Source: Tetradesmus obliquus
Taxonomy: Eukaryota > Chlorophyta > Chlorophyceae > Sphaeropleales > Scenedesmaceae
Reading direction: 5' to 3'
NCBI GenBank assembly: GCA_030272155.1
Contig: CP126198.1
Coordinates: 3,534,001-3,598,000, forward strand
DNA: 64,000 nt
Shown here: one piece after another, positions 27,301-51,480 of the stretch
How positions within the stretch are numbered: position 1 is the stretch's first letter
How the letters are laid out: every line of letters starts with the position of its first letter
The notes under the pieces: model-generated
Databases searched by the model: none
Told to the model about the DNA's origin: nothing
Seen by the model: the letters and a program-made list of their open reading frames with translations, nothing else
Position numbers and translations under genes: made by a program

Positions 27301-27924
27301 CAGTGCAGCAGGTTGAGGTATGACGGTACCGCTGCTGCATGGGACTGGTAACAAATGACACAAATCAATAGACGTCTGTCAAGTGACAACCCATCAAGAC
27401 ACATGTCTATGAAGTGACGCTTTTCAAACCTATGGATGTGTAGGACCCTCACCTTGCAACCGCATTGGAATGAATCACTTGCTCCAATGAGCTTCAACGT
27501 GCAAGCCATGCACACCCAACGTGCCTCTTGTGGTGGAACATGCCTGGACTCACCGCAGTCCTACATAGGACATATATGTGCTTGCCGAATGCAACAGGAA
27601 CCCCTCCTTGCGCTCCAGGAGTGAGCGTAGTTGAGATGGCTTGAATGGCAATATGATGAGTTTGGCAAGTACACCAAAAGCACAAGAGCACAGCAGCCAG
27701 CTGCTGCCATCCGCAGCAGCAGCACACCTGCTGACAAGCCGACACAACCCTCAACAACTAGCAGCATCGCTCAATGGAGCAGACACATCCGTGCGTCCAT
27801 AGAAACAAAAACTGTGCTGCCCGTGCCCACACAAACCAAAACAGCACGGCTGTCACACACGCTGCGTGACACTGTGTGTGCCCACTTACCACCTGTGTCG
27901 CTGCCTAGAGCGATCAGTCATGAT
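24365..27924. other. Gene-poor 3.6-kb stretch
   Basis: I see no convincing coding region, RNA gene or element. Short open frames at 24675-25160, 25142-25535 and 25601-25846 look like chance: no domain and no phase-consistent splicing. Base composition shifts towards T and G on the plus strand to about 27200, which would fit a long 3' UTR or a non-coding transcript of the preceding gene. A small AT palindrome (about 26923-26951) is the only clear local structure. Confidence 0.5.
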
Positions 27925-27985
27925 GCGCGGGTCCACCTCCTGGCCCCTGCCCCTGCCCCGGCGGCTCCGGCCCCTGGCGGGCCGC
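27925..27985 (-). repeat. Degenerate tandem copy of the TOP3B C-terminal tail
   Basis: About 117 bp beyond the matching part of the last TOP3B exon, the sequence repeats the Gly/Arg-rich end and the VDPR tail (compare 28037-28080). It lies downstream of the TOP3B stop on the minus strand, so it is a duplicate in the 3' flank. Confidence 0.7.
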
Positions 27986-28019
27986 CACTTTAACGAACCG
28001 CACTACATGATGGTCAAAT

Positions 28020-28197
28020 TTAGAAGCGGTCAAACGTCATGCGTGGGTCCACATCCTTGCCCCTGCCCCTGCCCCTGCCCCGTCTGCCCCTGCCGCGCCC
28101 CCTGCCCCGCCGCCCTCCACCGCCCCGCTTCACAAAGGTGCGGCCATGCTTCACCTCGCACAGCTCCATGAGGAACTCCTCGCAGCTGAGGCAGCCT

Positions 28198-28240
<43 letters not shown>

Positions 28241-29265
28241 TTACGGCTGTGCACTTCAAGCTGATGACTGCCAGCAGCACACTGTGTTTCATCGCTCATG
28301 CATTGTTTTGAGTGCATTTTGGCGGATTGTTGGGCTGCACGGCAGTGTGGTGTTGTGTGGTCTGCAGCCGCCGCACCTGTGTATGCTGTATCCCCGCCTG
28401 GCAGCGGGCTCTTGCCCTTGAGCCAATCCAGCTTGAGCAGCTTGGAGGAGCACTCCTGGGGGTGGATGAAGCAGCAGCAGCAGCAGCAGCAATCAGATTG
28501 TTATGACTGCACACTGCACACAATGTGCACTCATTCCTACCCCCGCAACCTGGCTCAGCCATAGCCAACAGTACTCAACAACAAAGTGTCAACCTTTTTA
28601 CCAAACTCAATCCGGTGATGTCACCACCCCGAGCGCACCTCGCAGCGCTCCTTTGCCACTTTTGCGTCGCGCAGCTCCTGCGGCAGGTAGATGAGGAAGC
28701 TGCACCTGCTGCAGTCCAGCCGCCACTTGGGTGCAGACACGGGGTCCAGCACCAGCAGCCCTATGCTGCACTCGGGGCAGGCCAGCACGCCCTGCTGCGC
28801 TGGGGAGTGCTTGCAGGTGGGGTGCAGGCAGCTGGGGCACGGCATGCCCAGCTTGACTGAGCCCTGCTCGGCCTGCAGCACGTGCGCAAATGTCGAGCAT
28901 AGGTGCAGAGAGCAAATAGCTTTCAATGATTATTGAGATGGCTAGTGACATGTGGGTTGTGGCACCAAATTGGACCAGGAATGTACTGCCGGGGCTCAAG
29001 ATGGTGCAGGGCACCGGGTGAGCGGCAGCGCAAAGACATTCATAGGCGGCAGCGGGACGCAGCAAAGCTGCTGTCACATCATTTGGGTGCGTTCACCGTG
29101 CAGAGTGGGAGCAGTGGCAGCAAGACTGGCTGACAGTGCCTGCGGCGAAGCCAGGAGCGAAGAGGTTGTATGACGCTCACCTTGACCACTCCCTCGAAGG
29201 GCGGGTAGTTGTAGCAGAAGGGGCACAGCGGGTAGGTCTTGCCATCCTGCAGCAGCAGCAGCAGA

Positions 29266-29319
<54 letters not shown>

Positions 29320-32300
29320 TGTTGCACAGGATCATCACTGTTCTGCAGCCAGGTTGGCGCTGGAACTGGGCGCTCTGGGTACTCTGCCATCTGGTGCGTG
29401 CAATGCAGAGAAAACAGACAGAGCACACTCCCATACACCATCGAAACTATAGCAGTACTTCAGCGACATGTTGACAGGTCAACCACCTGATGGCCCCTGT
29501 TAAACGCTTGACATATACTGTCCTCGTTGTACTGCAGGCCTCACTTCACTCACCGAGCCAGCCAGGCTGAACAGTGCCAGCTCAAAGCCATCCAGTGGGC
29601 ACTCCAGGCCCTTGTACTGCTTCACAGCACCGCCCAAAACCACGCGCACTCGTATAACACGCTGCATGCTCTGCACATGCTTCAAGCTGCATGACTGGCA
29701 CACACACCCTCGCAGCTTCAGCAGCACAACAGCAACATGACGTCAGGGCAAACGCCTCAGGGTGTATGTCCAGTTCCAGCTCCAAAAAAGCATCACCATA
29801 TGTTAAAACGCTGTACTACACTCACCGAGCCAGCTAGGCTGAACAGCACCAGCTCAAAGCCATCCAGGGGGCACTCCAGCCCCTTGTACTGCTTCACAGC
29901 ACCACCCTGGGGCAGCGCATACACGTCCTCACAGGCAGCGCAGTACAGGCGGGACGGCCGCGCTGCGATGTACTTCATGTAGCGCCTGCACTTGCCACAC
30001 TTGCTCATGGGCTTGCCTGCGTGCATGACCAAAACGGGCGCGCAGCGCAGCAGCATGCAGATAGGAGCGCGTGTAAGCACCACGGTGTGTCAAGAGTGTT
30101 GTGTGTGACACGAGCGGATGCGCCTGTCAGCACACCAGCACGCCAAAGCCGCACGGTATGCATGGTGACAACTCGCAACACTCCAGCACCGCAGCCCTCA
30201 CCGCTGGAAGTCGGCTGAAGGACTCTGAACACCATACCGACTGAATCCTGTTCAGACGTCAAGCAAGAAGCAGCAAAACCCTCCAAGACTCACCGCTGGA
30301 TAAGAGTGGGCTGAAGGATGCCTCAAACAGCACGTCCTGGACATTATTGCAAACTCGATAAGAATGGTACAACCGTTATGCAGCTTCTCACCGCTGGAGG
30401 ACAGTGGGCTGAAGGAGGCCTCAAACAGCGCGTCCATGCGCGTGATGTGTCCCACGAAGAACATGAACTTGGCGCGGAACTGCTCCAGCGTGTGAGCCAC
30501 CACTGCCTCCTTCTGAGCCTTGCCGTCAGCCACCAGCCCAATCTGCTGCTCCACATGCGCACGCACCTGCAGATGTCAACACAACAGTGCAGAATGTTTT
30601 CAAATACTCTTGAAGAGTTGAAAACGGTGTCAGCAGGTAGTGTGTGCGCCACCACCACCTCCTTGCCATCAGCCACCAGGCCAATCTGCTGCTCCATGTG
30701 CGCACGCACCGGCAGATGTCAGTACAACCATGCAGAATTTGTTTGAAAGGTATCAGCAGATACATGTGCCGCCACCGCTTTCTTTGCAACCGTCACCAGC
30801 CCAATCTGCACCTGCGGGGTTGATTCAAACAGTTTGGGGAAAGGTTTGATTTGGTTGGACAGCACCAGCAAAAACAATAAAACCAGTAGCAGTGCTTGCA
30901 CTGGTGCAGGGCACAGGCCTATTCAAAGCTGCCGCTGGGTGGTGTAGCTGGTGATGCATCCTGTACTGTTTGCTGTACACGGCACCAAGCTACCCCGCAT
31001 TTGCATGTCTCACGCCACATCCAGCACCCCGTTATTTGTCACATTGACTGAAATTTGAAAGTTTGGCCAGTTTGACCAGCAGCTCACATGTGGCCTGCAG
31101 AGCTCCGGGTCAATCAGCTGGTAGCCCTTGATGAGGGTGATGCCCAGCTCAGTGGGCACGACACGCCGCCCCGACTGGATCTGCAGCAGCAAGAAACAGT
31201 GTCATAACACGACATAGCAGCAAGCACACTATGAGCCACAGTACACCTGCACCTGCTTCATGTGGCTGCTGCAAAACTATTCCAAGTAGCTGCTGCTCAA
31301 TCAAGCTATCCGTCGAAGCAATGCATAAAGCATTTCAACCTGCACGTAGTTGCGCTCGCAGATGTTGTTGATGTGCGTGGGGATGCTGGCGTCTGTGCCA
31401 ATGCCGTGCTTCTCCATCAGCCCGATCAGCTCAGCCTCCGTCAGGTAGTCGGGGGGCTGCAGCAGCAGCGGCAGCAGCAGCCAGCAGCAGCAGCAGTGCA
31501 AGAACAAGCCAGCAGTTGCAGTGAATGCGTCATCAGCATCATCGTGCAGCAGCCAGCACAGCACGTGCCTACACATTGTCCGCCAAGCAACACACTGCAG
31601 CAAGCTGCAAGCAACAGCACTTCCTTGTGCTGCAGCTTCGCAAGTTGACATGCGAACGTACACACGTAAGCAGCACACTCACGCTGGTCTTGCCCGCGCT
31701 GAGCTCCACTCCCTTCAGCGGCAGCACCTGGCCCTCACTGAGCGGCGGCAGCGGCTCAGCCTGGCTCACCTGCACGCGTGTGCATTGGATGCAGAGCAAA
31801 ACAGCAAGCGATGCACAAAACTTTTGTCGGAAAGGACACACAAACACAGCAGGGCCTGGCCCTCACTGAGCGGCGGCAGCGGCTCAGCCTGGCTCACCTG
31901 TGTGCGCAAATGCAGCGCAGCGCAGCGCAGCGCAGCGCAGCGCAGCACAGCACAGCATAGGAAATGTGATGTGGGGCACCACCCAGAAAACAAATCAACA
32001 TACACTTGTCATTGGGTACTGATGTGCCACTGGGCTGCTTCCAGGGTATTGGTGCATAGTTGTTACAGCCGACAATGCAATTGTTTGTGTGCGTGCATTC
32101 GCTTGCTGCCTGTGGCCTTGCTGGTCCGCTTGTCAACCGTAAGCTTGGATCTGTAAAGTACGCAGCAGGAACACCAGGCTGCTTCAAACATTAGGGTGTT
32201 CAAACCTCACACCGCCGCCCCCCCTCCCTCCCCCCCATTCCCAACTCACCTTCCAGGGCATGATTGCTGTGAAGCCCGGCCGCAGCACCACACTGCTCCA

Positions 32301-35300
32301 CAGCAAAACTGAAAGACAGCAAACTGCTGTACAACCATCACAGGCAACCCCCCACCTTCCAGGGCGCGATGGTGGTGAGGCCGGCCCACAGCACCTTGCA
32401 GCTGTATGGCCCTCATACAAATCTTGCACAGATGCTGTGGGAATCTCAACCACATCGTGCGAAGCCCTCCTGTATCATGTCCCCTCACCTTCCAGGGCAT
32501 GATGGCTGTGAAGCCTGGCCGCAGCACCACACTGCCCCACAGCTGAGCCGCAACACAACACACTACTATACAGCCACCACACATACAGGCCACCCACCTT
32601 CCAGGGCATGATGGCTGTGAAGCCTGGCCGCAGCACCACACTGCCCCACAGCTGAGCCGCAACACAACACACTACTATACAGCCGCCACACAAAGGCCAC
32701 TCACCTTCCAGGGCATGATGGCTGTGAAGCCGGGCCGCAGCACCACGCTGCCCGACAGCAGAAACAAACCTCTACACGCTTGCTGTACAGCCATCACACG
32801 CAAGCCTGCTGCCACCTTTCAGGGCATGACACACACATGTACACATAACCACCCACCATCCCTTCATCCACAGTAGGTTGCACCAAGCTGTACACCACCC
32901 GTCACACACAAACACAAACAAGGTCCCCTCACCTTCCATGGCATGATGGCTGTGAAGCCCGGCAGCACCACGCTGCCCCACAGCAAAACTGAAAGACAGC
33001 AAACTGCTGCACAGCCATCAAACACAACCCCCCACCTTCCAGGGCGCGATGGTGGTAAGGCCGGTCACAGCACGTTACTGTTGTATGGCCCTCACACAAA
33101 TCTTGCAGAAATGCTGTGGGAATCTCAACCACATCGTGCGAAGCCCTCTTGTATCATGTCCACCCACCTTCCAGGGCATGATTGCTGTGAAGCCTGGCCG
33201 CAGCACCACACTGCCTGAGGCGCTGAAGGTCTCGCCGCCACCAGCCAGCACAGCCTTGGTCTTCTTGAGCACGCAGTCCCCTGCAGCAGGCAGCAGCAGC
33301 ACAAGACATAGATGTCTCACCTTCATCAGTTGGCCGTGTATTGACAGGCCACTTGATTGAAAGCAGCCAACGCGTTGACACTGTTGTATGATCCAGCAAT
33401 GGTGCGCGCCCTACCTGAGAGGCTGGCCAGGCGCGCCCTACCTGACAGGCTGGCCAGGAAGTGTCGGGCCACGTAGTCGTAGATGAGCCAGGAGTCGCCT
33501 CCCCCTAGCTCAGCCTCAGTGGCAGCACGCACCGGTGTGATGGGCGGGTGGCTGCAGCGGCGGTGGCAACGCACGTAACAGCACATTGAAAACTTGAAGT
33601 CTTGGGTGGCTGGTTGCGCTGTGTACACATGCCAGCCGCCGCTGCTGCATGCATAGCTGTGCTGAGTACAGCAATTGAGTTGCGAGCAGAAGCAGGATGT
33701 AAACCGCAGCGCTTCCAGGCATTAACTACATTATTATACAGCCTGAGCTGCATGAAATGCTGCCGCTGCTGTTGTCACATAGTCGATACAGCTGTGTTGA
33801 CGCAACAGCTGTACTCACTCTCCAACATCTGTGCCACCCTGCAGTGCAGCAGAGCAGCACACATACCCGTATTAGTTGTTGTGCACAGTACGTATCAAGC
33901 GCATCACGCCCCGTATGCTAGTGCAAGCAGTTTCAATGCCGATGTGTGACTGCCGACATCCTCGCGGGCCACAAATACCCAGCATGCTGTAACACATGCT
34001 GCTGGTACTTTACGCAGCGTGCAGCTGGCATACAAGCGGCAGCAGCAGCAGCAGCACACACCTTGGGTTTTGTCACGCCCTGTGCCAGCAGCGATGATGC
34101 ATACTCCCCCCAGATGGGGTGCCGCGCCTGGCTGGACAGCGTGCCTGCAGCAGCAAACAGCAACGGAAGGCGGCTCATATCTTACAATCTTGACAGCTGC
34201 CTGTCTGTGGCAACACGTCAGCGTAGGCGTGTAATCACTTACAGCAGCAGGTTCTGCCGACATAGGACCAGTACTATTGAGGCTGCTGCGTCGGATTCTG
34301 CGCCAGAACCAGGCAGCACTGTCTGCATTGCAGGCCCAGGCAGCAGAGCAGCCGTATCGTTCCCGCACCTTCAAAGTCAAAGTTGGGTGGGTAGCCTGAT
34401 GACTCTGTGCGGGGGTAGGACAGATAACCACTAGTGTACAGCCGCTCAGCCACCTGCAGCGTTTGCAAAGGCAGCAGCCGCAAAAAAGCAACAGCAGGAG
34501 CAGCCTTCCGTCAGACATAGAGGAGATAGGGCAGCCAAACCAAGCAACAGCTGTAGCTGCTACGGCACAGGCAGTACACAGGCAGCTGCTCTCATTGTTG
34601 CATCACCAACAAAGGACAAACCCAGCAAGCTGCATCAATGTTTGAGGAGATTCACCACACACATGTTGCAGCCCCACCAACCCACCGCCATCGCTTGCGC
34701 AGGTCACATGTTGAGTGCGCTGCTGGCAGTCTTGAGCAGCTCCACAGTGTTCAGCCCCAGCACATTATAAATACCCGCAACACCAAGGGAATCATGCGGA
34801 CGCACAGTCAATTTCCGCATGCATGACAGAGACTCATGCGCAGACACTGCAGCTCCACCCACCGCCATTGCCTGCGCAGGTCCGATGTTCAGCGCGCTGC
34901 TGGCAGTCTTCAGCAGCTCCACAGTGTTCAGGCCCAGCCCTTCAGAGATACCCCCAGCACAGTACGACCCACACGGACACAGGAAGCTGCAGGAATGTAT
35001 GACAAGACTCATTCACAGACACTGCAGCTCCACCCACCGCCATCGCTTGCGCAGGTCCAATGTTCAGTGCGCTGCTGGCTGTCTTCAGCAGCTCTGCTGT
35101 GTTCCAAACCTTGACACATAATCATGAACAGCCACAGCAAAGCTGCAGCCACGCCGACTCACCGCCATCGCCTGCGCAGGTCCGATGTTCAATGCGCTGC
35201 TGGCAGTCTTCAGCAACTCCACAGTGTTCAGCCCAGGTGGCCGTGGCTTGCGGTCCTCTTTGGCAGTGACACTCTGCACACGCAGCGAGCCTGCGTCCTT

Positions 35301-35796
35301 GACCGCTGCTGCAAAGACCTGCCCCACATCCTGGTCAAACACACGGCCCCGCTCCCATTCTAGGTTGAGGCGGTCGCCAGCCTGCAGAGAGAAAAGAGAG
35401 ATGAGCAGGGAGCGAGAGTAAGCGAGAGGGAGCAATGGAAGCAGCAGGCAGAAAGATGCATTGATTTGGGCTGTGCTGCGCGTTGTGTGCTGCGGGAACA
35501 GCATGTGTGTTCATCAGCCCGTTGGTTGCAAGCACCAGCACAGCACAGGTTTATCTCGAGATGGGTACTGGCACAAGCCGCGTGCAACTTAGCCAGATAT
35601 GGGTGCACCACACAGAACAACTCCGTCTGGAAGGTCAAGATGCAAAATCAGCTGAAGATACATCAATGCAATGGGTTTGCCCTTGCAAGGGCTCGCACCT
35701 TAGCCAGCTGCGGCCGCACCACCCAGAATGGCTCTGGCTGGAAAGCCACGATGGCCTGGTGCCGCTCCACTGTGAAGCCCAGCGTGGGTGTCTGGG

Positions 35797-35830
<34 letters not shown>

Positions 35831-37964
35831 GGAGAGCAGGAGACAAAGCGGTAAGACACATGCCACATGATGGACAGGCAATTGACGGGCTGCAACATGA
35901 GGCGCTAGGTGCAAACTACGACGTTGACATCACTCCTCATTACCAACAGCTATTAACCAACCTCACCCCACTGCACAGCACACTGGTTGCACTCAATCCG
36001 TGAAGAGGGATGTACACAGCGGTGTGCTAACAGCCAGCTGCAACCCCTGCAGCACCGGCCTTTATGTGCATCAGCTGGCGGCTGGCTGTGAAAACCCAAT
36101 GCTTGCTGGGTTGTTGGCTGTTTGCATGCGACATGATGATGCAAGTGTGGCTTGCAACGCTCATAATCCGCAGCGCCATTACCTGGCAGGGCCCATATGA
36201 CACCACAGTGGCATCCAGGTTGCCATACCTGCATGCGCAACAAAGCCAGATGTGGGGTCAGCAAGCTGGCTGTCAATATGCTCACACTTGCTGATCGTAC
36301 CATGGCAACCGCTACACACACTTCAGTGGCAGGGCCTCAAACACAGGTGCAAGCACACCATTGCTGCAGGACATCCTGCACGCCTGCCGCTGCAAACCTC
36401 CACACCCTGCCAACACACCCTCACCTGCCCTGGAAGAAGCGCGTTTGGAAGCGTGTAAATGCCACACCCACTTTCAGGTCCAGCTCCTGGCGCGCAGCAC
36501 AACCTGAGCCTTACCCCGAGCCTAAAGCCTGGCCAGAACCCTAGTCAAAAGCCCAGCATACAGCCTCACCTGCCCTGAAAGAAGCGCGTCTGGAAGCGTG
36601 TGAATGCCACGCCCACTTTCAGGTCCAGCTCCTGGCGTGCATCAACCGCCAGCGCCTCCGCCTTGTTGGGTGCACCCAGGTTGGCCTGGCAGCAGCAGCA
36701 GCAGCAGCAGCAGCCACGCGACAGCAGCTGATGTGAAGGGCGGCTAGGCCAGCTGTGTGGTCCCGGGCATAACGCCGCAGCTGCTGCTGCACCCAGCACT
36801 ATGTTCAGCAGTGCAGCTGCAGCAAAACCTAGGATCCATACATACACCAAACAGCATGCACGCACTGCGAGTAGCCAGTGCAGCGAGCGCGATGATGTGC
36901 AAGCGGCAGCGCAATGCATCAAGCAGCTGCCTGTACACCCTTTCTTCTGCACCTCTGCTGCTGTGGCAACATAGCCCAAGCCCTCCCTGCACTTGCCTGC
37001 TGCCAATTGAGTCAGCAACTGTGTATAAGAAACATACCAGCTCTCAACGCATCACGCCAACATGGCTGCCTTGACCTCTGGCACGCTGACAGCTGCTGAG
37101 GCAGTACAGCCCAACCTCTGCATGCAGCCTGTGCTGTCTCCAGTTTGTATAGCCACAGCTGTTTTGCTTGGCAGCTGCTCCTCACCATGGCTGCCTTGAC
37201 CTCCGGTGCGCTGACTGCTGCTTCAGTGCTACAGCCCAACCTCTGCATGCAGCCTCTGCTGTCTGCAATTCGTACAGCCACAGCTCTGCCCATCAGCTGC
37301 TCCTCACCATGGCTGCCTTGACCTCTGGCGCGCTGACTGCTGCTTCACTGCTACAGCCCAACCTCTGCATGCAGCCTGTGCTGTCTGCATTGCGTATAGC
37401 CACAGCTCTTCTGCTCCTCACCATGGCTGCCTTGACCTCCGGTGCGCTGACAGCACTGAAGCGAGCCCTGAACACTGTCTGCTGGCCAGGGGCGCCCCGC
37501 TTCATGTGCGGCAGCACATTGTCCATCACCTGGCAGCAGCAGCAGCAGCGGTGCGCGTTGTTCAAGATGTGCGGCACACGTCAGTTCTTCAAGCACAATG
37601 TAGGTGCCTGCGGCAGGCGTTCCACTCTTCCCTGCTGCTGCCGCCGCACCTCAAACAGATGATGCCTCCCTCCCTATTGCATGCTTGCAGGAACATGCAC
37701 CAACGATGGCTGTGCGCTGGAGCCTGTCAACGCTGCTGCAACTGCTGCTGTCGCACCTCGAAGCAGATGTTCCCTCCCTGCATGTCCGTGTGCTTGCAGG
37801 AACATGCCCAGTCTACCTGTATGCTGTCAATGCTGCTGCTGCTGCCGCTGTCGCACCTCAAAGCAGATGTTCTCCCCCTCCCTGTCGCAGTCCAGCCACA
37901 GCACCAAAAAGTCCGCGCCTTTGCCCTCGGTCTGCAGGTGGCGGCACACGTGCGCCTGCAGCAC

Positions 37965-38003
<39 letters not shown>

Positions 38004-38452
38004 CAGCACAGCCAGGCAGCAGTGCGGGGACACAGGGCTAGTAGGTGCTCTTGGTTGAAGTGTTGCCTCATGCGTCGCCTGGAGGTGCCCATGCTAGGGC
38101 ACTGCTGGATGCAAAGAGTGGTGACGATCTCATCATCTTGCCCGGCACCTTGCCCAGTCAATGCCTCAGCACATGCAGGCTGTTTGATGTTATGCAAAAG
38201 CCCAAATCAAGAACCACAACCAGGCAAGCTCCTGAAACAGCGCTGTGCACCACTGCACTGCTATAGGTCAACCTGTTTGATGTCAGAAACTGCACAAGGC
38301 TGCTTTCAAGGTTTGAATCTGTCAAAGGCGCAGCGCTGACAAAACATCACCTTGGGGTTTGCCTCTCCCTTGAGCGTCTCAGCGCCAAACAGCTCCAGGG
38401 GGTCCACCCTGTCCCAGCTGTTGTAGGCGGGAGGGAAGTCCAGGTTGTAGCT

Positions 38453-38487
<35 letters not shown>

Positions 38488-39080
38488 GAGCAGTCAGCAA
38501 CAGCCAACAGCAGAACATAACACGACTTTGTTTGATCATGATTGCCAGCCATCAATGCCGCACGTGCCACCCTGTCAGCCTCCCACGGCACAGGTTGGGG
38601 TCACGAACAAAGACATACACAGGTCTCTGTCACTGCAGTGCCCCTGCTGCTGCCACTTCTGGTGCCACTGCTGCTGCCACTGCTGCTACAGCTGTGAGCA
38701 TCCAGCGTGACAGCATGCCGCCTCAAAGCACCTACTGCTGGAGCACATGCACGGAGTGCATGGTGCTGCTGCTGTGCACAAATGCAGCTGCAGCTACTAC
38801 TAGATCTCCTCATCACCAGCATGCCGGAGGCCACTACATGGATGCTACGGATGACTTTCCAGCTGCGCTACAAGCCTATGCAGACTGGCAAATGAGAAGC
38901 GGAGCAGCTGCTGCGCCGAGATGGTGGCTGCACTTTGCAGTGATGCCTGCTGTCACATGTCCACTGCGCTGCCTGCTCACACATGCCCAATGACGCTGGT
39001 CATCTTGAAGTTCGCAGCCTGCCCCTTGAAGTTCCCACTGAACTCGTGCACCTCCAGTGCTGCGCGCCGCGAGTACATCT

Positions 39081-39112
<32 letters not shown>

Positions 39113-39407
39113 GTCAAGACAGTGAGCGCACTCACGCATGTAGCACGCAGGCACGCCTGTGTGTGAAGATGCTTCTGCTGTGCACACTGGTTTGAAAACA
39201 GCAGCGCTGCAGCCATGCTGTTGCCATATGCCCTGGTAACAATGCACAGGAAAGAATGAAGCTTCCAGCAAGCAGCATGTGCGGTGACCCCAGCATTTGC
39301 ACTGTGATGTGCCAGTGCACTGGCCTCACCTGCCCATTGCTGAGGAACTGCGCAATAGACAGTGCCAGAGATGGCTTTTCGGCCACCATAAGCACGCTGA
39401 CAGGCAT
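28020..39407 (-). CDS. TOP3B: DNA/RNA topoisomerase 3-beta
   Basis: Minus-strand exons in order: 39330-39407, 38981-39078, 38351-38450, 37857-37955, 37422-37529, 36570-36685, 36183-36228, 35699-35791, 35163-35381, 34369-34453, 34062-34144, 33819-33838, 33442-33551, 33168-33280, 31683-31769, 31340-31456, 31088-31180, 30392-30566, 29826-30016, 29181-29246, 28639-28872, 28377-28455, 28020-28195. Every junction keeps phase. The product is 861 residues, against 862 in human TOP3B. The TOPRIM domain has LMVAEKPS and [10 protein letters not shown]; the catalytic tyrosine is in [10 protein letters not shown] (about residue 332). C-terminal CxxC zinc fingers precede an RGG box and a short acidic/basic tail. 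Type IA enzymes pass single strands through a transient break; TOP3B also acts on RNA through the RGG region, by homology. Exon 12 is a 20-nt microexon. Eleven exons have tandem copies of an exon edge in the adjoining intron, yet the frame is intact. Confidence 0.96.
29247..29318. repeat. (CAG)n microsatellite at the acceptor of TOP3B exon 20
   Basis: About 22 CAG triplets, interrupted once. On the TOP3B strand this reads (CTG)n and runs straight into the CTGCAG acceptor of the exon at 29181-29246, so it stands where a polypyrimidine tract is expected. Confidence 0.9.
29554..29640 (-). repeat. Tandem copy of TOP3B exon 19 3' end plus donor
   Basis: Repeats the exon end [15 protein letters not shown]...SLAGS and its GTGAGTG donor, 272 bp downstream (gene direction) of the true junction at 29826. 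The copied reading frame is open and nearly unchanged, but it has no proper acceptor. Confidence 0.88.
30202..30391 (-). repeat. Two tandem copies of TOP3B exon 18 3' end plus donor
   Basis: The exon end [11 protein letters not shown] with its GTGAG donor (junction 30392) recurs with junctions at 30294 and 30202, spacings 98 and 92 bp. The further copy is more diverged. Confidence 0.85.
30567..30811 (-). repeat. Two tandem copies of TOP3B exon 18 5' end with acceptor region
   Basis: The exon start [16 protein letters not shown] (edge 30566) recurs with edges at 30709 ([16 protein letters not shown]) and 30811 (shorter, VQIGLV). The copy at 30709 follows CCG rather than CAG, so its acceptor looks dead; the one at 30811 still follows CAG. 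Confidence 0.82.
31770..31897 (-). repeat. Tandem copy of TOP3B exon 15 5' end with acceptor
   Basis: The exon start [14 protein letters not shown] (edge 31769) is repeated with edge 31897, 128 bp upstream in gene direction, with a CAG before it. The copied frame then leaves the exon sequence. Confidence 0.88.
31911..31958. repeat. Pentamer microsatellite (GCAGC)n
   Basis: About nine GCAGC-type pentamers, drifting to GCACA at the right end, in a TOP3B intron. It is one of the few local repeats here that is not a triplet. Confidence 0.85.
32250..33167 (-). repeat. Eight extra tandem copies of TOP3B exon 14 3' end plus donor
   Basis: The exon end [14 protein letters not shown] with its donor (true junction 33168) recurs with junctions at about 33036, 32933, 32816 (degenerate), 32705, 32598, 32489, 32356 and 32250. 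Spacings run from 103 to 133 bp. Most copies keep both the coding frame and a GT donor (GTGGG or GTGAG). The block 32250-32540 resembles 32933-33220, including identical non-coding stretches, so the array itself was enlarged by a later, larger duplication of about 683 bp. Confidence 0.92.
33415..33441 (-). repeat. 27-bp tandem copy of TOP3B exon 13 3' end plus donor
   Basis: The end of exon 13 and its GTAGGGCGCGC donor are repeated once at 27-bp spacing (junctions 33442 and 33415). Because 27 is a multiple of three and the copy is open, use of the second donor would add nine residues (RARLASLSG). Confidence 0.88.
34686..35162 (-). repeat. Three extra tandem copies of TOP3B exon 9 3' end plus donor
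   Basis: The exon end [22 protein letters not shown] with donor (true junction 35163) recurs with junctions at 35038, 34863 and 34686, spacings 125, 175 and 177 bp. The copies carry a GTGGGT donor while the true site is GTGAGT. The copy at 34686 has an internal stop. Confidence 0.92.
35588..35698 (-). repeat. Tandem copy of TOP3B exon 8 3' end
   Basis: [15 protein letters not shown] is repeated as [15 protein letters not shown] 111 bp downstream in gene direction. The donor of this copy has lost its GT. Confidence 0.82.
36425..36569 (-). repeat. Tandem copy of TOP3B exon 6 3' end plus donor
   Basis: The exon end [20 protein letters not shown] with a GTGAGG donor is repeated at 145-bp spacing (junctions 36570 and 36425). 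The copy differs at only a few mostly silent positions. Confidence 0.9.
37061..37421 (-). repeat. Three extra tandem copies of TOP3B exon 5 3' end plus donor
   Basis: The exon end [10 protein letters not shown] with GTGAGGAGC (true junction 37422) recurs with junctions at 37308, 37186 and 37061, spacings 114, 122 and 125 bp. The last copy has lost its GT. Each unit also copies about 80 bp of intron, so the intron is built largely of this repeat. Confidence 0.92.
37650..37856 (-). repeat. Two extra tandem copies of TOP3B exon 4 3' end plus donor
   Basis: The exon end EGENICFE with GTGCGAC (true junction 37857) recurs with junctions at 37757 and 37650, spacings 100 and 107 bp. The nearer copy keeps GGNICFE and the donor; the further copy is more changed. 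Confidence 0.88.
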
Positions 39408-40098
39408 GGTGGGCAATTACAGCAGCCTGCTGGCCGCGCTGCGTTCGAACAGGCAGCAGCAGTTGCTCAGCGCTGCTGCTGTTGTTGCCACACTAGATGT
39501 CCAGGGCCGCAGCCCCCTTGCAGACTGCACGGCTCCTTTATTCAACAGTAGATCATGAACACTAAGATTCTTGTACCAGTCTCAGCTGAACTAGTCTTAA
39601 CGACGTAACCTACGCATTCAAGCACAAGTAGGGGTGGCAGCAGAGTGTGAACTCCAGCATAACCGCATGACACATAGCTCAATGGGCTTGCTGCCGCCCA
39701 CTGCACCACTCTAGACAAGCGGAAATGTTGCGGTAAACAATGACGGGTGTTGACTCGCGATCAGGATGTGGTTGCGCGCATAACAGGCTTGTCTGGCATG
39801 ACAAGAACAGGTTACACCAGCGGTGTCTTCCGTCCAGCTTCAGCTCGTACACTTATTGTTCAGGTTACTTTGAGCTGTTTCACATTTCTGCATCCAAGCT
39901 GCACGTTGCCCGTGCGTTGTTTTTGCCAGAGACGAGTGCCGCAGCCTGCTCGTCGAACACAGACAGGTTGCCGACGCACCTTTAGCACAGACTTATATAG
40001 AAAACACCAGTTGTAACTTTTGTTGCATTATAGGTCCCGGGTTGTGCAGCAGACCGCAGCCATCAGCTGCTCTAGCACAGCCCTAGCAGCAGCACAAC
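39408..40098. promoter_or_regulatory. Divergent promoter region, TOP3B (-) and NOP16 (+)
   Basis: 691 bp between two start codons. It holds both promoters and 5' UTRs, and pairs two housekeeping genes. I see no certain named motif; an AT-richer stretch with TTATATAG lies at about 39990-40035, about 100 bp before NOP16. Confidence 0.5.
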
Positions 40099-46123: not shown

Positions 46124-47007
46124 ATGAGCGGAGTTGTCCACACGCACCGGTGCGGCAAGTGCGGCAATAAGATCTACTTCAAGTTTTGGGAGGTGAGAAC
46201 GACCTGCTGTATACGCCAAAGGCAGGCGTGACCACACAGCTGGTCCTTTCCACCAGCAGTGGTGCACTTGGCAGGCAGTCTCACTGATGCTGCTTGCATG
46301 CTTTTGCAGGATGGACCAGCAGACACCCTGCAAAACGGGCAGGGAAGCGCCTCTACTGCAGATCACACGCAGCAACGAGAGGCTGCACCACCACCAATGC
46401 CCTACTGTGATGCCAGTCCAGTCACTGAAGCTGAGGCAGCGCAACATGAGCAGCAGCGAAGGAAGCGGGCACGAACCACTACCACTGCAGCAGAGGAGGT
46501 TTCAGGTGGTGCCACTGCACTAATGGCTTCTATAGCAGCGGCAGCTGAGCCCCAGGTGGCATCACAACAGCAGCAGCAGCAGACCCCGGCCTCTGCACCA
46601 GCACTGCCTGCTGCTGTTTCTGTGCTGCCAGCTGCAGCTGCAGCAGATTAGCCGCATGTGCAGCAGCAGCAGGAGCAGCAGCAAATCCCTGCCTCTGCAC
46701 CAGCACTGCCTGCTGCTGTCTCTGCGCTGCCAGCCGCAGCTGCAGCAAATGAGCCGCATGTGAAGCAGCAGCAACAGAAGCAGCAGCAGCAGCAGCAGCA
46801 GGTCCCTGCCTCTGCACCAGCACTGCCTGCTGCTGTCTCTGCGCTGCCAGCTGCAGCTGCAGTAGATCAGCTGCATGTGAAGCAGCAGCAGCAGCAGGAG
46901 CAGCAGCAGCAGCAGCAGTACCCCGCCCCTGCACCAGCACCGCCTGCTGCTGTTTCTGTGCTGCCAGATGCAGCTGCAGCAGATCAGCCGCATGCGCTGC
47001 AGCAGCA

Positions 47008-47040
<33 letters not shown>

Positions 47041-48923
47041 CACACAGCAAGGCTTTAGCGCGGCTGCAGCAGCTGCTGCCGCAGAGTCAGGGGAGTTTGC
47101 TGCTGGCAAGCAGGTGTACGTGTGGGAGCTAGAGGATGTGCTGTGGACTCGCAAGTTCACCAGGACAGTATATGAGACCACCAGCATGGGATGCATAGGG
47201 CAGGGCGGCAATGCAGTGGCGTACTTGGTGCGGCTGGACAACATTGTCAAGCCAGAGGCGCAGCCAGACACAGCAGCAGCTGGCTGCAGCGAGGCGCGGC
47301 CAGCAGAGGCAGCAGCAGCACGCTGGCGCGCCCGCAGGCTGCTGCCCGGCCCTCAGGTTGGCGGCCTTTACGTGCTCAAAGTGTGCCGGCTGCTGCAGGA
47401 TTTAACAGAAGAGGAGCGCTGCGGCACTGCAGTAGATGATCAGCGCAAGTACCTGTATGCTGTGCGCAAGCAGCTGCTTGGCGAGCGCGCGTGCTATGGC
47501 AGGCTCCCGCGCAGCCCGCACTTTGTGCGCTGCTTTGCGTATGGGGCAGCAACAATGACGGCGTCAGGCGCAGCTGCAGCACCCCCTGCAGTCGGGCAGG
47601 AGCGGCCCTGCCTGCTGCTGGAGTATGCGCAGGGCGGCAGCGTGGCGGCGCTGCTGGAGTCAGCAGAGGGTGGCGCTGCTGGCATGAGCGCGCAGCAGGC
47701 GCGCGATGTGATGCAGATTGCGGCAGAGGCGCTGCAGCACTGCCATCGCTGGGACATTGTGTACAGGGACCTTCAGCCCGGCAACATTGTGTTGAGCCAG
47801 GCGCCGTCAGGCGAGAGCGATTACAAGCTGATTGACTTGGGGTCCTCCATCATCACGGATGAAGGGCCGGGCACAGACCACCGCTTCGGGATGCTAGCAT
47901 ACCGCGCGCCCGAGCAGCGGCCTGGCTCCACCCACACCTACACGCTGGACACCTGGCAGCTTGGGATGCTGCTGCTCCACCTGAGGACAGGTGCGTGGTC
48001 GGTGGTGGTTGTGTGATTTTGTGCATCTTGCTCAACGGCTGTACTGGACACCTGGCAGCTAGGGCTGTTGCTGCTGCACCTGAGGACAGGTGCGTGGTCG
48101 GCGGTGGTTGTGTGATTTTGTGCATCCTGCTCACGGCTGTATTGGACACCTGGCAGCTGGGGCTGCTGCTGCTACTCTTGAGGACAGGGTCGGCAGCGGC
48201 TGTGTGTGCTTCCGCATCCCGCCTGATGGCTAAACAGTGCAGCGCCGCGTAGGGTACTTGTTGCGTTGTTGCACCGTGGCATCGTGTTCATCTGCGCACT
48301 GGCCGCAATGTCAGTTGCTCCCTTTCCTAAGCACCACCTGAAATACCTGGCTGATGCATGATGCGGACGTGTTGTATGGCACGCCACCAGTGACAAACTC
48401 ACAGCAAGTGCAATGTGCAGCAACAAGGTGCACCTGCCACACCCTTGTCGGCAGCGTCAGCCACTAGATGCACGCATGTGCACACGAAACCCCCTCAACA
48501 GCTGCAGCACAGGTGCCGTTGACTGCACAACGTTTGTGCCGGCAACTGATTGTGCTGCCGGTTGCCCTCCCTCTGCTTGGCCCCTTTTGCGTGTCTGCAG
48601 GTGTGCTGCCGCTGCTGGAGCTGGCAAGCCTGCCAGAGCCCGAGTGGCTGGCGCAGGTCAGCGCAGTGCACCAGGACATCCTGCATGCCGAGCAGCACCC
48701 CTACCTGCAGCGCTACACCTGCCTCAGCCAGAAGGAGCGGCAGCTGGTCAACATGTGCCTGGTGCCTGATGCCAACGCTCGGCTCAAGGTGGACCGCGTG
48801 TTTGCCACTTGCGACTATTTTGTGCTGGAGGGCCTGACATTCGACGCGAACGAATGGAGCGATGCCGTAGCTTTCATGCACGACTCTGGCGCAATCACTG
48901 GCCAGGTGCTGCACAAGGCGTAA
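46124..48923 (+). CDS. Kinase-fold protein, copy B, with one-knuckle zinc motif and a stop codon in the linker
   Basis: Exons 46124-46192, 46310-47990 and 48601-48923, all in phase. Exon 1 encodes MSGVVHTHRCGKCGNKIYF, a CxxC knuckle. Exon 2 has an Ala/Gln-rich linker of four degenerate 34-40-codon units and then the kinase fold: GQGGNAVAYL loop, VLKVC lysine, YRDLQPGN (HRD Asp kept), LIDLGS (DFG Asp kept) and RAPEQ. A TAG at 46649-46651 interrupts the linker in frame where the neighbouring repeat units have CAG. The gene is therefore either a young pseudogene, or starts downstream (ATG 46658), or removes the stop by unannotated splicing. The end of exon 2 and its donor are triplicated in the last intron. 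Substrate unknown. Confidence 0.8.
46582..47040 (+). repeat. Coding minisatellite of about 100-120 bp, four units
   Basis: Units begin near 46591, 46693, 46810 and 46930 and encode SAPALPAAV...PAAAAAD followed by a Gln run. Spacings are about 102, 117 and 120 bp. The in-frame TAG lies at the end of the first unit. Copy A keeps only a degenerate single unit (about 3395-3450). Confidence 0.85.
47945..48200 (+). repeat. Tandem triplication of kinase B exon 2 3' end plus donor
   Basis: The segment from CTGGACACCTGGCAG through AGGACAG|GTGCGTGG and on to ACGGCTGTA occurs at 47945-48043, 48044-48141 and, partly, 48142-48200 (spacings 99 and 98 bp). The true junction is 47990. The second unit keeps a perfect donor; the third has lost it (AGGACAGGGT). 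Kinase copy A has one unit only, so the expansion happened after the genes split. Confidence 0.92.
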
Positions 48924-50349
48924 GCTTTCACAGCACAAGGAGTGTGCCACTAGAATGCATGTTCTTGTCAAGCGATGGGATGTGCTTATTGCCACACAGT
49001 GTGCTTACACTCACTCCTGTGGGGCACGGGGCCGATGGCGTTGTTGTGATGGCTTGAATAGTAACATGGTGATGATGAGTGTATGATGGCTGGCATTGGC
49101 GCCCTCACCAACACCTGCCTATATTCACATGAAGGCGGTCCACCACCGCTAGCGACTGTCACAGTCACAGTGCAGAATTGATAGTTGTTGTATTTCATGG
49201 CCGCAACCAGCCTGCTGCAGCTCTTGTGTGCTGGATGATTGGTGTTGGTAGGGAGAAGGAGGATCAGCAGCAGGTGTGCGCAGCAGTTGCAGCTGGTTGT
49301 CAGGCATCGCAAGGCCAGTCTGCGAGTATCGCAGTATAACGCAAGTTGGCGGGTCGTACACTCCGTGATATCGCAGTATAACGCAAGTTGGCAGGTCGTA
49401 CACTGGCGGGTGTGCAGTGACGTAGGGTGCGGCGCAGTTGGACAAGCAGCTGTTTGAGCCGGCAGTGTCTTATTGGGTGTGCACCCTGCTTTGCTCAGCA
49501 GATGCGTGCCATTGCCTGGCTGACATGGTCATCGTTGCTATTCTTGCAATCACCTCGCGGTAGCAGAGCATGTAATCACACTCAGTGTGACAGTGTGAAA
49601 GAACCTTTCGTCACGAAGCAGTGACACAAACGGTATCATGGTGAACCTCAGCTGACTATCCCAAATACACCACCCGGCCACAGCCCAGCCCTCGCAGCTT
49701 ACAATACCCTTGACCACACTACACCACAAAAAACCCACACTACACCGGTGCAGAATGCCGTTAACACAAACGACGTATGCATGCATGCATGGAAGACATG
49801 CCAACCAGTGGTTGCAGCACACACACAGGAGCAGACCCGGAGCAAACTTTGCTGCACACACACGTCTCCCAAAGCAGCGACCACTCAAACTGTGCATTGA
49901 AGACAGGACCCAAACAGAACTCCCTTCTGACTACCGGGCACAATATGCCTTGCAAGCATGCGGTCGTATGTGTAAGCACAAAGCAATGCGCTCAGCAAGG
50001 CACAACAGGCAGCTGGCTCACGGCAGCACTGTGTCGCAGCAACCACAGCAATGGCGAGTCCTGTGAATGTGCCAATGGCAACAAGCACAATACGACTGCT
50101 TCGTGCTGGTCTCAGCCAACACGAACACACAGGCACGCCATCAGCGGCCAAACACCCCGCAGCACCCAACCAGGCACTGCACCAGGTGGTGCCACACGCC
50201 GCACGCAGTGATAACACCACAGCACAGTGCACCTTACCCAATCATTCAGCTGCTGCAAGAACTCTCACACTCATGGGCCGCACATAACAGGGTAGCACGC
50301 TGCCAAGCTGATCAATACAGCCGCATGCTGCTCAGCGCAGGTAAAGACG
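48924..50349. other. Intergenic region right of kinase B
   Basis: No supported gene. About 49000-49130 resembles the downstream flank of kinase copy A. About 49240-49310 resembles the 3' flank of MGST3, as if a further MGST3 end once lay here. Open frames at 49710-50363 show no domain. Confidence 0.55.
49329..49404. repeat. Two-unit direct repeat, 42-bp period
   Basis: A 34-bp stretch starting TCGCAGTATAACGCAAGTTG occurs at 49329-49362 and 49371-49404 with one mismatch, each copy ending in GGTCGTACACT. Confidence 0.85.
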
Positions 50350-51480
50350 TGGATGCCGGTTGACTCACTGGCGGCATCTAGCAGATGTAGCCGGCTGGCG
50401 CGTAACGCGCGGGGCCGCCGAGTGGCGGCGCAGTCAACGCGTGCCTGGGTGTGCAGCAGAGTAACTGCGTGCCTGTCGGGTCTGCTGAGCTGCTCGGTCA
50501 CTCGTTGCCGGGACCCCTGCGGGCGGCGAGGGAGATAGGGCGGCTTTGCTTGCAGGACAGGGGTTAGTCTAAAGCTGAGTGCGCGCTCTGCTGCTGGCAC
50601 TGGGCTGTTGCACTCGCACACTCGCGCGGCGCTGCGTGTCGCACCGCTGTTGTTCTATCACGGGCTGTGGGTTGTAAGGCAAAGGCACTGTGTGCTGCTG
50701 TAGCACCAGTGTGCTCAAGTTACTCGATGCAGGCTGCTCAGCGGCAGTGTGGGCTGGCAGTAGTAAAGGTGTCACACGTCTGTGGTGTGCAGGGAACGTA
50801 GCTGGGCTGTTGCTCTTCAACAGGCAAAGGGCTGGGAAGCAGGCTGAAACTCACCTCTGGTGGCTGCTGCTAGGCTGATAATCGTTGCTGGCAGCTGGTT
50901 ACACGAGCTGCTGTGTCGGTGTTGTGCTGCTAGACTTTAGCGCACGGTTGGTGGCAGGCTTAGGTGCACTCTGGGCACGGCTGCGGCTAACAAAGGGCAC
51001 TCTCCGGTGCGGCGTATCTGTCTCAAGGCTCAGGTAAGTCAGGCTGGTAAACTCGAACTCAGCGCGTGTAGAAAGTTACACAAAAGATCACGTTGTATCA
51101 CAGTATCAATTCACTTCGTTGTTCTCTCTCCTCCTAATCCGGGGTCTGTTCCCATGGCATGCTCTCATGTCTCTAGGCTGCCGCCTTATATACTGGCTGC
51201 CGGCCTATGACCTTCCAGCTGCCGCAACTTCACCTTCCAGCTGCCAGTAACTTCGCAGTTACTGGCAGCTACCAGTCAGACATGCTGCATGACAGACATG
51301 CTGAGGCTGGTCAGTCAGACACAGCCCACAAGTCTGACCTGGCTGCTGCTACAGCCGCCAGTCAGTCATGCTGGATGCTGTACACAACAGCACGCTGCTG
51401 CAGCCATTTCTTTCTCAAAAGCTTCTACATGATTGTGCTATGCAATTCTCATCTAATGCTGTTCCTGCCGTAGCAGCGCT
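50350..51480 (-). mobile_element. Possible LTR-like or other non-coding element, minus strand
   Basis: A 1.1-kb non-coding block with composition unlike its surroundings. Read on the minus strand it has a TATATAAGG box near 51190 and a 14-bp inverted repeat just upstream of it (51239-51252 and 51257-51270, loop TCGC). That layout resembles the promoter part of an LTR. I find no coding region, no certain ends and no target duplication, so the assignment is weak; a promoter of an unseen non-coding RNA is an alternative. Confidence 0.3.

What the first reader, a model, noticed from the sequence alone, without database searches (positions are those of the whole stretch)
28020..39407. Splice-junction-anchored tandem duplications throughout TOP3B
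At eleven of 23 exons a segment of 27-272 bp that spans an exon edge is repeated in the adjoining intron. In nine cases the copied edge is the exon 3' end with its 5' splice site; in exon 15 it is the 5' end; exon 18 has both; the last exon has its tail copied downstream. Copies keep coding sequence and often a usable GT, yet the single-copy path still gives a full 861-residue protein. Random tandem duplication should not centre so often on donors. Possibilities are a mutational process tied to transcription or splicing intermediates at donors, or selection for multiple donors.
Basis: partly seen in the sequence, partly recalled or inferred. Interest (0 to 1): 0.93.

Follow-up and report, generated by a model that had tools for sequence, protein, structure and literature searches.

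The report
Exon-border copies left in algal introns
In this green-alga-like genome, short stretches of about 100-150 bases that straddle exon borders have been duplicated again and again into the neighbouring introns; the extra copies look silent and decaying, but their crowding at exon borders is not explained by random duplication.

Summary
The repeats are real. A 23-exon, 861-residue TOP3B gene on the minus strand matches a solved TOP3B chain over residues 4-722. Copies of exon borders lie in its introns: donor type at exons 4, 5, 6, 8, 9, 13, 14, 18, 19 (exon 2 weakly), acceptor type at 15 and 18, and the last exon's tail downstream.

It is genome-wide and not donor-specific: 36 of 302 predicted donors and 32 of 326 acceptors have a near copy of the splice-site region within 300 nt, against 0 of 1439 and 0 of 1550 controls. 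26 of the 36 nearest donor spacings are 99-159 nt.

The copies decay like neutral DNA: copied donors keep GT in 29 of 34 cases, 0.83 expected without selection. Selection for multiple donors is not supported.

Uniform duplication plus survivorship also falls short: in the 319 introns without border copies, repeats of this unit size are 0, where I estimate about 30. Origin or early survival is therefore tied to exon borders. At least 51 nt of native intron separates a working donor from its copy, except in 26-27-nt units. The mechanism (break repair, then filtering by splicing) is inferred. No RNA data or relatives were available.

The parts
28020..39407 (-). TOP3B (DNA topoisomerase 3-beta) gene, 23 exons, ATG at 39407, stop at 28020-28022
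   Evidence: Exon model; Pfam; alignment to PDB 9cah_A over residues 4-722
38944..38998 (-). exon 2 donor, 26-nt tandem, 2.1 copies (weak)
   Evidence: TRF, 82% matches; not confirmed by the alignment
37857..37886 (-). exon 4 3' end (source of donor-type copy)
37635..37786 (-). exon 4 donor-type copy in intron 4 (spacing 100, 68% over 154)
37058..37340 (-). three tandem exon 5 donor-type copies (unit about 114-122)
36415..36499 (-). exon 6 donor-type copy (spacing 145, 92%; 75 exon nt plus donor +10)
35584..35642 (-). exon 8 donor-type copy (spacing 111, 75%; GT lost)
34655..35104 (-). three exon 9 donor-type copies (35104-35032, 34934-34857, 34757-34655)
33405..33458 (-). exon 13 donor, two 27-nt (nine-codon) copies, 26/27 identical
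32244..33080 (-). exon 14 donor-type array, seven copies, TRF unit 109
31849..31900 (-). exon 15 acceptor-type copy upstream of exon 15 (spacing 128, 96%)
30661..30743 (-). exon 18 acceptor-type copy upstream of exon 18 (spacing 143, 87%)
30289..30337 (-). exon 18 donor-type copy (spacing 98, 90%)
29432..29635 (-). exon 19 donor-type copy (spacing 272, 71% overall; exon part 76/82)
27906..27986 (-). copy of the exon 23 tail, downstream of the stop codon (64/81)
47945..48188 (+). independent example in the window: donor-type tandem (unit 99) in the gene finder's gene at 46124-50567, at the end of a protein-kinase match (47600-47992)

Best explanation
These are remnants of recurrent small tandem duplications, in donor pairs of 98-152 bp (23 of 34) or 183-284 bp (11 of 34), that straddle exon borders of both kinds. 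Because the original splice site stays next to its exon, the extra copy falls inside the intron, is spliced away, and then decays without constraint; the exon half stays recognisable longer because its source is under selection. Two things go beyond ordinary tandem duplication. First, duplications of the smaller class are confined to exon borders in the sampled genes, so their birth or early survival is tied to exon-border DNA. Second, the working splice site keeps at least about 50 nt of native intron beside it, which I read as a splicing filter: with less native context the copied site would win and break the message. SHOWN: the copies, both border types, the rate in the sample, near-neutral decay, the size class, the spacing floor and the deficit in intron interiors. 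INFERRED: that the copies are spliced away, that the duplications arise by repair of nicks or breaks in exon-border DNA, and that splice-site choice sets the floor.
For: 36/302 donors and 32/326 acceptors have a 19-of-22 or better copy at 14-300 nt; controls 0/1439 and 0/1550. 68 of 387 introns of 80 nt or more carry a junction-type copy, 53 of the 68 with nearest spacing 80-159; of the other 319, 10 carry intron-internal repeats, with spacings 40-70 in 8 and 190 and 259 in two, none 80-160. With gapped BLAST clusters, 67 touch an exon (54 with smallest spacing 80-160) and 9 do not, none of the 9 having a basic unit of 80-160 (one is a 28/56-nt satellite whose multiples fall there). Geometry gives 3.15 times more intron-only than junction placements, and intron parts alone stay detectable in 11/42 pairs, so about 30 were expected (my estimate). 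Decay: GT kept 29/34 against 0.83 expected, donor score 4.24 against 3.97 expected (a different placement of the copied donor gave 30/34); intron part diverges 1.73 times the exon part where alignable (365/1723 against 161/1314), close to my prediction of about 1.6 for a free copy of a constrained source. Floor: smallest donor gap 52 nt in 34 pairs, log10 P -7.5 for the 24 with unit under 200; in the second sample four donor edges have nearest gaps 51, 57, 84, 85.
Against: Exon borders outside TOP3B come from a home-made gene finder, which calls some copies exons. The intron-only expectation rests on an estimated detection factor. Windows in introns that are not exon copies show no steep fall with distance from the splice site (0.9-3.3%), which taken alone favours uniform duplication. 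One of the two second-sample stretches (S7) has no donor-type copy in 28 donor edges, only 3 acceptor-type in 28. 11 of 34 donor pairs align over less than a quarter of their intron part, so those are not shown to be plain tandem units. The exon 13 and exon 2 units of 26-27 nt break the floor. No composition signal at donor +10 to +50 explains the donor floor. One intergenic stretch has a unit of 99. Synonymous share in donor pairs, 123 of 241, is above the 0.43 I calculate for a free copy, and exon parts have fewer indels than a free copy predicts (10 against 73 in intron parts), leaving room for constraint on some copies. Breakpoint microhomology was not tested.
Confidence: 0.55

Rival explanations
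1. Unbiased small tandem duplication everywhere, with survivorship only: duplications inside exons are purged, those inside introns decay twice as fast and vanish, and border-spanning ones stay visible through their constrained exon half.
For: Copies decay nearly neutrally; exon-edge windows stay visible more often than neighbouring intron windows (46/281 against 17/300 at 24 of 30); intron windows that are not exon copies show 0.9-3.3% with no steep fall; 22 of 34 donor pairs still align over 60% or more of their intron part.
Against: Simulated detectability differs only 0.197 to 0.171, and the measured loss (11/42) still leaves about 30 intron-only duplications of 80-160 expected, 0 seen; clusters 54 junction to 9 intron/UTR-only, 67 to 9 with the second sample.
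Confidence: 0.27
2. Selection keeps multiple splice sites, for robustness or for alternative splicing.
For: 29 of 34 copies keep a GT; 10 of 34 copied donors score above the original, 7 equal; synonymous share 123/241 in donor pairs is above the free-copy expectation.
Against: GT loss and donor score match unconstrained decay; 11 of 12 indels in exon parts of donor copies shift the frame; no enrichment of strong acceptors at copy starts; donor unit lengths modulo 3 are 9, 11, 14.
Confidence: 0.06
3. The copies are alternative or cassette exons, that is, tandem exon duplication.
For: The gene finder calls several copies exons and some keep open frames; weak acceptors are enriched at copy starts (0.88 against 0.59 at score 0 or more); the spacing floor resembles a minimal intron (repeat-free introns, 1st percentile 59.7 nt).
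Against: Copies are partial exons and strong acceptors are not enriched at their starts (0.18 against 0.18 at score 4 or more); frameshifting indels; the solved TOP3B chain has no such segments.
Confidence: 0.06
4. Assembly artefact: haplotypes or noisy reads laid end to end as false tandem duplications.
For: The assembly method is unknown to me and no reads were available.
Against: Copies span 74-98% identity in their exon part, with tight spacing and border specificity, on every contig sampled; false haplotype duplication would not choose exon borders.
Confidence: 0.04
5. A short mobile element (introner-like) inserts near splice sites and creates long target-site duplications.
For: Narrow spacing range.
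Against: Of 68 weak matches between gap sequences of different genes, 64 are CAG-type simple repeats and 4 are short others; in 22 of 34 donor pairs the intron part is duplicated too.
Confidence: 0.02

Closest known systems
Tandem duplication across an intron-exon border in a potato RNA-dependent RNA polymerase gene (PMC4974935; passages and section 5 read)
   Same: A short tandem duplication spans an intron-exon border and multiplies splice signals; its two copies differ at ten positions.
   Different: There the duplication made a new spliced intron, shown by RNA-Seq, in one gene; here the copies appear silent, occur at about 12% of tested donors and 10% of tested acceptors, and no new intron is inferred.
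Intron gain by tandem duplication of an AGGT-bearing exon segment (Rogers model, ATP2A1; as described in PMC4974935)
   Same: Tandem duplication near splice signals leaves the protein unchanged.
   Different: The model duplicates exon-only sequence; here the unit straddles an existing border.
Tandem repeats concentrated near intron-exon junctions in the two green algae of a 31-species survey (PMC3887541; passages read, part of the abstract among them)
   Same: Green algae, repeats crowding at intron ends, introns richest in repeats.
   Different: The motifs named in the passages I saw are short (di-, tri-, hexanucleotides); exon-border copies of 100-150 bp are not described in them.
Small tandem duplications from break repair by CST and Pol alpha-primase fill-in (PMC8355091; passages read)
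   Same: A general way to make short tandem duplications without homology.
   Different: Shown in mouse and human cells at induced breaks; the passages give no link to splice junctions and speak of insertions under 100 bp.
Tandem exon duplication / mutually exclusive exons (recalled)
   Same: Exon sequence repeated in an adjoining intron.
   Different: Here part-exons that mostly lack one strong splice site and decay.

Membership tests
[quoted passage not shown]
   Tandem units
[quoted passage not shown]
   No RNA data; strong acceptors not enriched at copy starts, weak ones are
Tandem exon duplication | Whole exon with both splice sites copied | tested here: not met
   In the 34 donor pairs the copied part begins 30-119 nt before the exon end, and inside the exon by construction of the set; a 30-nt stretch with both sites repeated in L029-L030 is an exception
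Tandem exon duplication | Copies conserved as coding sequence | tested here: inconclusive
   Against: 11 of 12 indels frameshifting in donor copies. For weak constraint: synonymous share 123/241 against 0.43 calculated for a free copy, and few exon indels
Introner / mobile element | Shared element sequence at many loci | tested here: not met
   Gap all-against-all: 64 of 68 between-gene matches are CAG-type repeats
Small tandem duplication by break repair | Direct head-to-tail unit without extra sequence | tested here: inconclusive
   Intron part aligns over 60% or more in 22 of 34 donor pairs, under 25% in 11
Small tandem duplication by break repair | Breakpoint microhomology or filler signature | not tested
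   Most copies are too old for clean breakpoints
Minisatellite | Homogenised array of short units independent of exons | tested here: not met
   Border-bound; intron-only arrays with units 40-70 form a separate class
DNA topoisomerase 3-beta | Toprim, topoisomerase core and TOP3B zinc ribbon | tested here: met

The most novel reading that the evidence does not exclude
A mutational process bound to exon borders, acting on DNA or its nascent transcript, makes tandem duplications of about 100-150 bp at donors and acceptors and almost nowhere else; splicing then lets through only those that leave about 50 nt of native intron beside the working site. Roughly one intron in six carries its traces in the sample, which would make it a main engine of intron growth in this lineage and a natural experiment on how much intron a splice site needs.
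Probability: 0.4. Interest if true: 0.82.

Novelty: new variant of a known kind. Interest (0 to 1): 0.62.

Why it matters
Where new introns and intron length come from is an old open question. If duplications are born at exon borders, splice junctions would be mutational hot spots, and a genome in which about one intron in six carries border copies (68 of 387 sampled) would allow direct measurement of how the spliceosome chooses between near-identical neighbouring sites. The spacing floor gives a concrete number, about 50 nt, to test in minigenes. It also warns gene predictors: my own finder called 37 exons in TOP3B instead of 23.

Tried and rejected
Gene finder: the first build failed to load and two single-strand versions ran everything into one gene per stretch; the two-strand version is the one used. 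I first thought the copies were coding exons under selection because several pairs (exons 6, 9, 14) differ mostly at silent sites; pooled counts and indels gave at most weak support. I then leaned to generic duplication plus survivorship; the size-class comparison went against it. let source and copy windows overlap and is discarded in favour. A dimer explanation for the 183-284 units holds in only 4 of 11 cases. The 30-mer profile used a very broad repeat mask (one hit left in S2) and is not relied on. Rfam: nothing in 27501-39700. Dropped before counts: two genes with protein-internal repeats (third gene of the window, third gene of S5); low-complexity windows; introns under 80 nt; two acceptor rows that repeat donor pairs (23 to 21); two further acceptor rows (S3 gene 4, S5 gene 5) aligned only in the intron part. 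In one search the best copy and the nearest copy per border was used. The listing was capped at 14 pairs per gene.
Full report
SETTING. The window is C8:3534001-3598000 of a 104.66-Mb, 17-contig assembly, GC 0.57, with many CAG-type microsatellites. I take it for a chlorophyte alga from genome size, base composition and gene style; that is inference, no call names the organism.

THE GENE. On the minus strand 39407-28020 a 23-exon model gives 2586 nt and 861 residues. Pfam and a match to a solved TOP3B chain, residues 4-722 of 861 against 9cah_A, E 5.7e-277 (human by recall), show that the single-copy path is the conserved protein and that no copied segment belongs to it in that range.

THE COPIES. 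A self-comparison on the minus strand finds copies beginning 30-82 nt before an exon's end, running through the donor and into the intron. All copies of one exon begin at nearly the same exon position, as expected for arrays that grew from one first duplication. Exons 4, 5, 6, 8, 9, 14, 18 and 19 are of this kind, exon 13 has a 27-nt version and exon 2 a weak 26-nt one. Exons 15 and 18 have acceptor-type copies upstream. The exon 23 tail is copied downstream at 27906-27986.

GENOME-WIDE. I fetched five 40-kb stretches (C1-C5) and later two 20-kb stretches (C6, C9), and wrote a two-strand gene finder (36 genes, 408 introns in window plus five stretches; donor consensus CAG|GTGNG, acceptor TGCAG|G). 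Alignment-free tests: 48/290 donor edges and 44/294 acceptor edges have a 21-of-30 or better copy within 600 nt on the intron side, 0.7 and 1.3 expected from unrelated introns (some acceptor hits there are donor pairs seen from the other end, because the finder calls some copies exons). A 22-nt probe across the site gives 36/302 donors and 32/326 acceptors against 0/1439 and 0/1550; nearest donor spacings are 27 (exon 13 of TOP3B), 26 in 99-159 and 9 in 220-279. Clusters: 19 donor, 14 acceptor, 21 both, 9 intron/UTR-only, 2 exonic in 34 genes. Window classes at 24 of 30: exon 3' edge 46/281, exon 5' edge 40/284, first intron bases 17/300, last 11/257, intron interior 85/1712 (exon copies included), exon interior 9/636, intergenic 4/722. 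The second sample is mixed: S6 has donor spacings of 108-129 and longer, two of the longer ones CAG-rich, among 24 donor edges, and several acceptor hits; S7 has 0 of 28 donors and 3 of 28 acceptors.

ARE THE COPIES FUNCTIONAL? In 34 donor pairs the exon parts differ at 241 scored changes: 123 synonymous, 113 nonsynonymous, 5 stops; random placement predicts 65.6 synonymous. A constrained source with a free copy predicts about 0.43 synonymous by my calculation, observed 0.51; acceptor pairs 44 of 86, predicted about 0.50. Where 60% or more of the intron part aligns (22 pairs) it has 365/1723 substitutions against 161/1314 in the exon part, ratio 1.73, and 73 against 10 indels; the indel deficit is larger than a free copy predicts, but local alignment favours indel-free exon parts. 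Of 12 exon-part indels in all 34 pairs, 11 shift the frame; 21 acceptor pairs have none. Copied donors keep GT in 29/34, expected 0.83, and score 4.24, expected 3.97 if decaying at the rate of codon positions 1 and 2 (0.089). Copy starts show no excess of strong acceptors (0.18 against 0.18 at score 4 or more) but an excess of weak ones (0.56 against 0.41 at 2 or more, 0.88 against 0.59 at 0 or more). So most copies behave as decaying sequence, with room for weak constraint on some.

IS IT ORDINARY DUPLICATION PLUS SURVIVORSHIP? Partly. Exon halves stay visible longer, and intron windows that are not exon copies show 0.9-3.3% with no steep fall from the splice site. But the size classes separate: 68 of 387 introns have junction-type copies, 53 with nearest spacing 80-159, while among the other 319 the 10 with internal repeats have units of 40-70 (8) or 190 and 259 (2), none of 80-160. 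Gapped BLAST clusters agree: 67 touch an exon, 54 of them with smallest spacing 80-160; 9 do not, and none of these has a basic unit of 80-160, one being a 28/56-nt satellite with multiples in that range. Geometry offers 3.15 intron-only placements per junction placement, and an intron part alone is still detected in 11/42 pairs, so about 30 intron-only cases were due (estimate; the 42 pairs come from the smaller sample and include two acceptor rows that repeat donor pairs). Intergenic DNA (46,857 bp) has four stretches with repeats, one with a unit of 99. Hence birth or early survival is linked to exon borders. I cannot tell a border-bound process from an exon-bound one whose exon-internal products are purged.

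THE SPACING FLOOR. The intron stretch between donor and copy is never under 52 nt in 34 pairs (52, 52, 53, 54, 54, 56, 58, 59 and up); for the 24 pairs with unit under 200 the chance under uniform placement is about 10^-7.5. Acceptors: minimum 46, log10 P -5.1 for 19 pairs. The second sample gives nearest donor gaps 51, 57, 84, 85, the 57 at a doubtful predicted exon. Small 26-27-nt units in TOP3B (exons 2 and 13) are exceptions; the exon 13 one is in frame. At acceptors the floor is near the length of the T-rich, A-poor stretch reaching to about -60; at donors no such composition signal is seen, so the donor floor is unexplained. My reading, inferred, is that the outer site loses to the copy if its native context is cut short.

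MECHANISM. Not a mobile element: 64 of 68 between-gene matches of gap sequences are CAG-type repeats. Small tandem duplications are known products of break repair (PMC8355091, passages); a border-straddling duplication made a new intron in potato (PMC4974935, section 5); tandem repeats near intron-exon junctions were reported as most marked in green algae (PMC3887541, passages). I commit to repair-made duplications at exon-border DNA, filtered by splicing, at 0.55.

LIMITS. No RNA, no named relatives, no reads; borders outside TOP3B are predicted; counts share arrays and are not fully independent; expected numbers are estimates.

Noticed in passing
window 46569-47035: 117-bp tandem repeat (39 codons), 3-4 copies, partly called exonic by the gene finder: an exon-internal duplication in the same size class.
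   Followed up: partly
window 56408-56593: 10/20/40-bp satellite (CCTCACTGTC) starting about 15 nt inside a predicted exon edge.
   Followed up: no
window 33405-33458: Exon 13 has two near-identical donors 27 nt apart in frame, so either could be used at the cost or gain of nine residues: a ready natural test of donor choice.
   Followed up: partly
L029-L030 joined (S6), gene on + strand, exons 25-28: A 30-nt stretch with acceptor and donor repeated at 123-129 nt, 29-30 of 30 identical; possible tandem whole-exon array.
   Followed up: no
window-wide: CTG/CAG runs sit directly before many acceptors and near some donors; they may help breakage or act as tract substitutes.
   Followed up: no
window 4073-4471 and 47600-47992 (+): Protein kinase domain matches in the neighbouring genes; the second gene carries its own donor-type tandem.
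   Followed up: partly
S4 stretch starting at 14386 (in L022): The one intergenic stretch with a unit of the same size (spacing 99, 28 of 30); may be an unpredicted gene or UTR.
   Followed up: no
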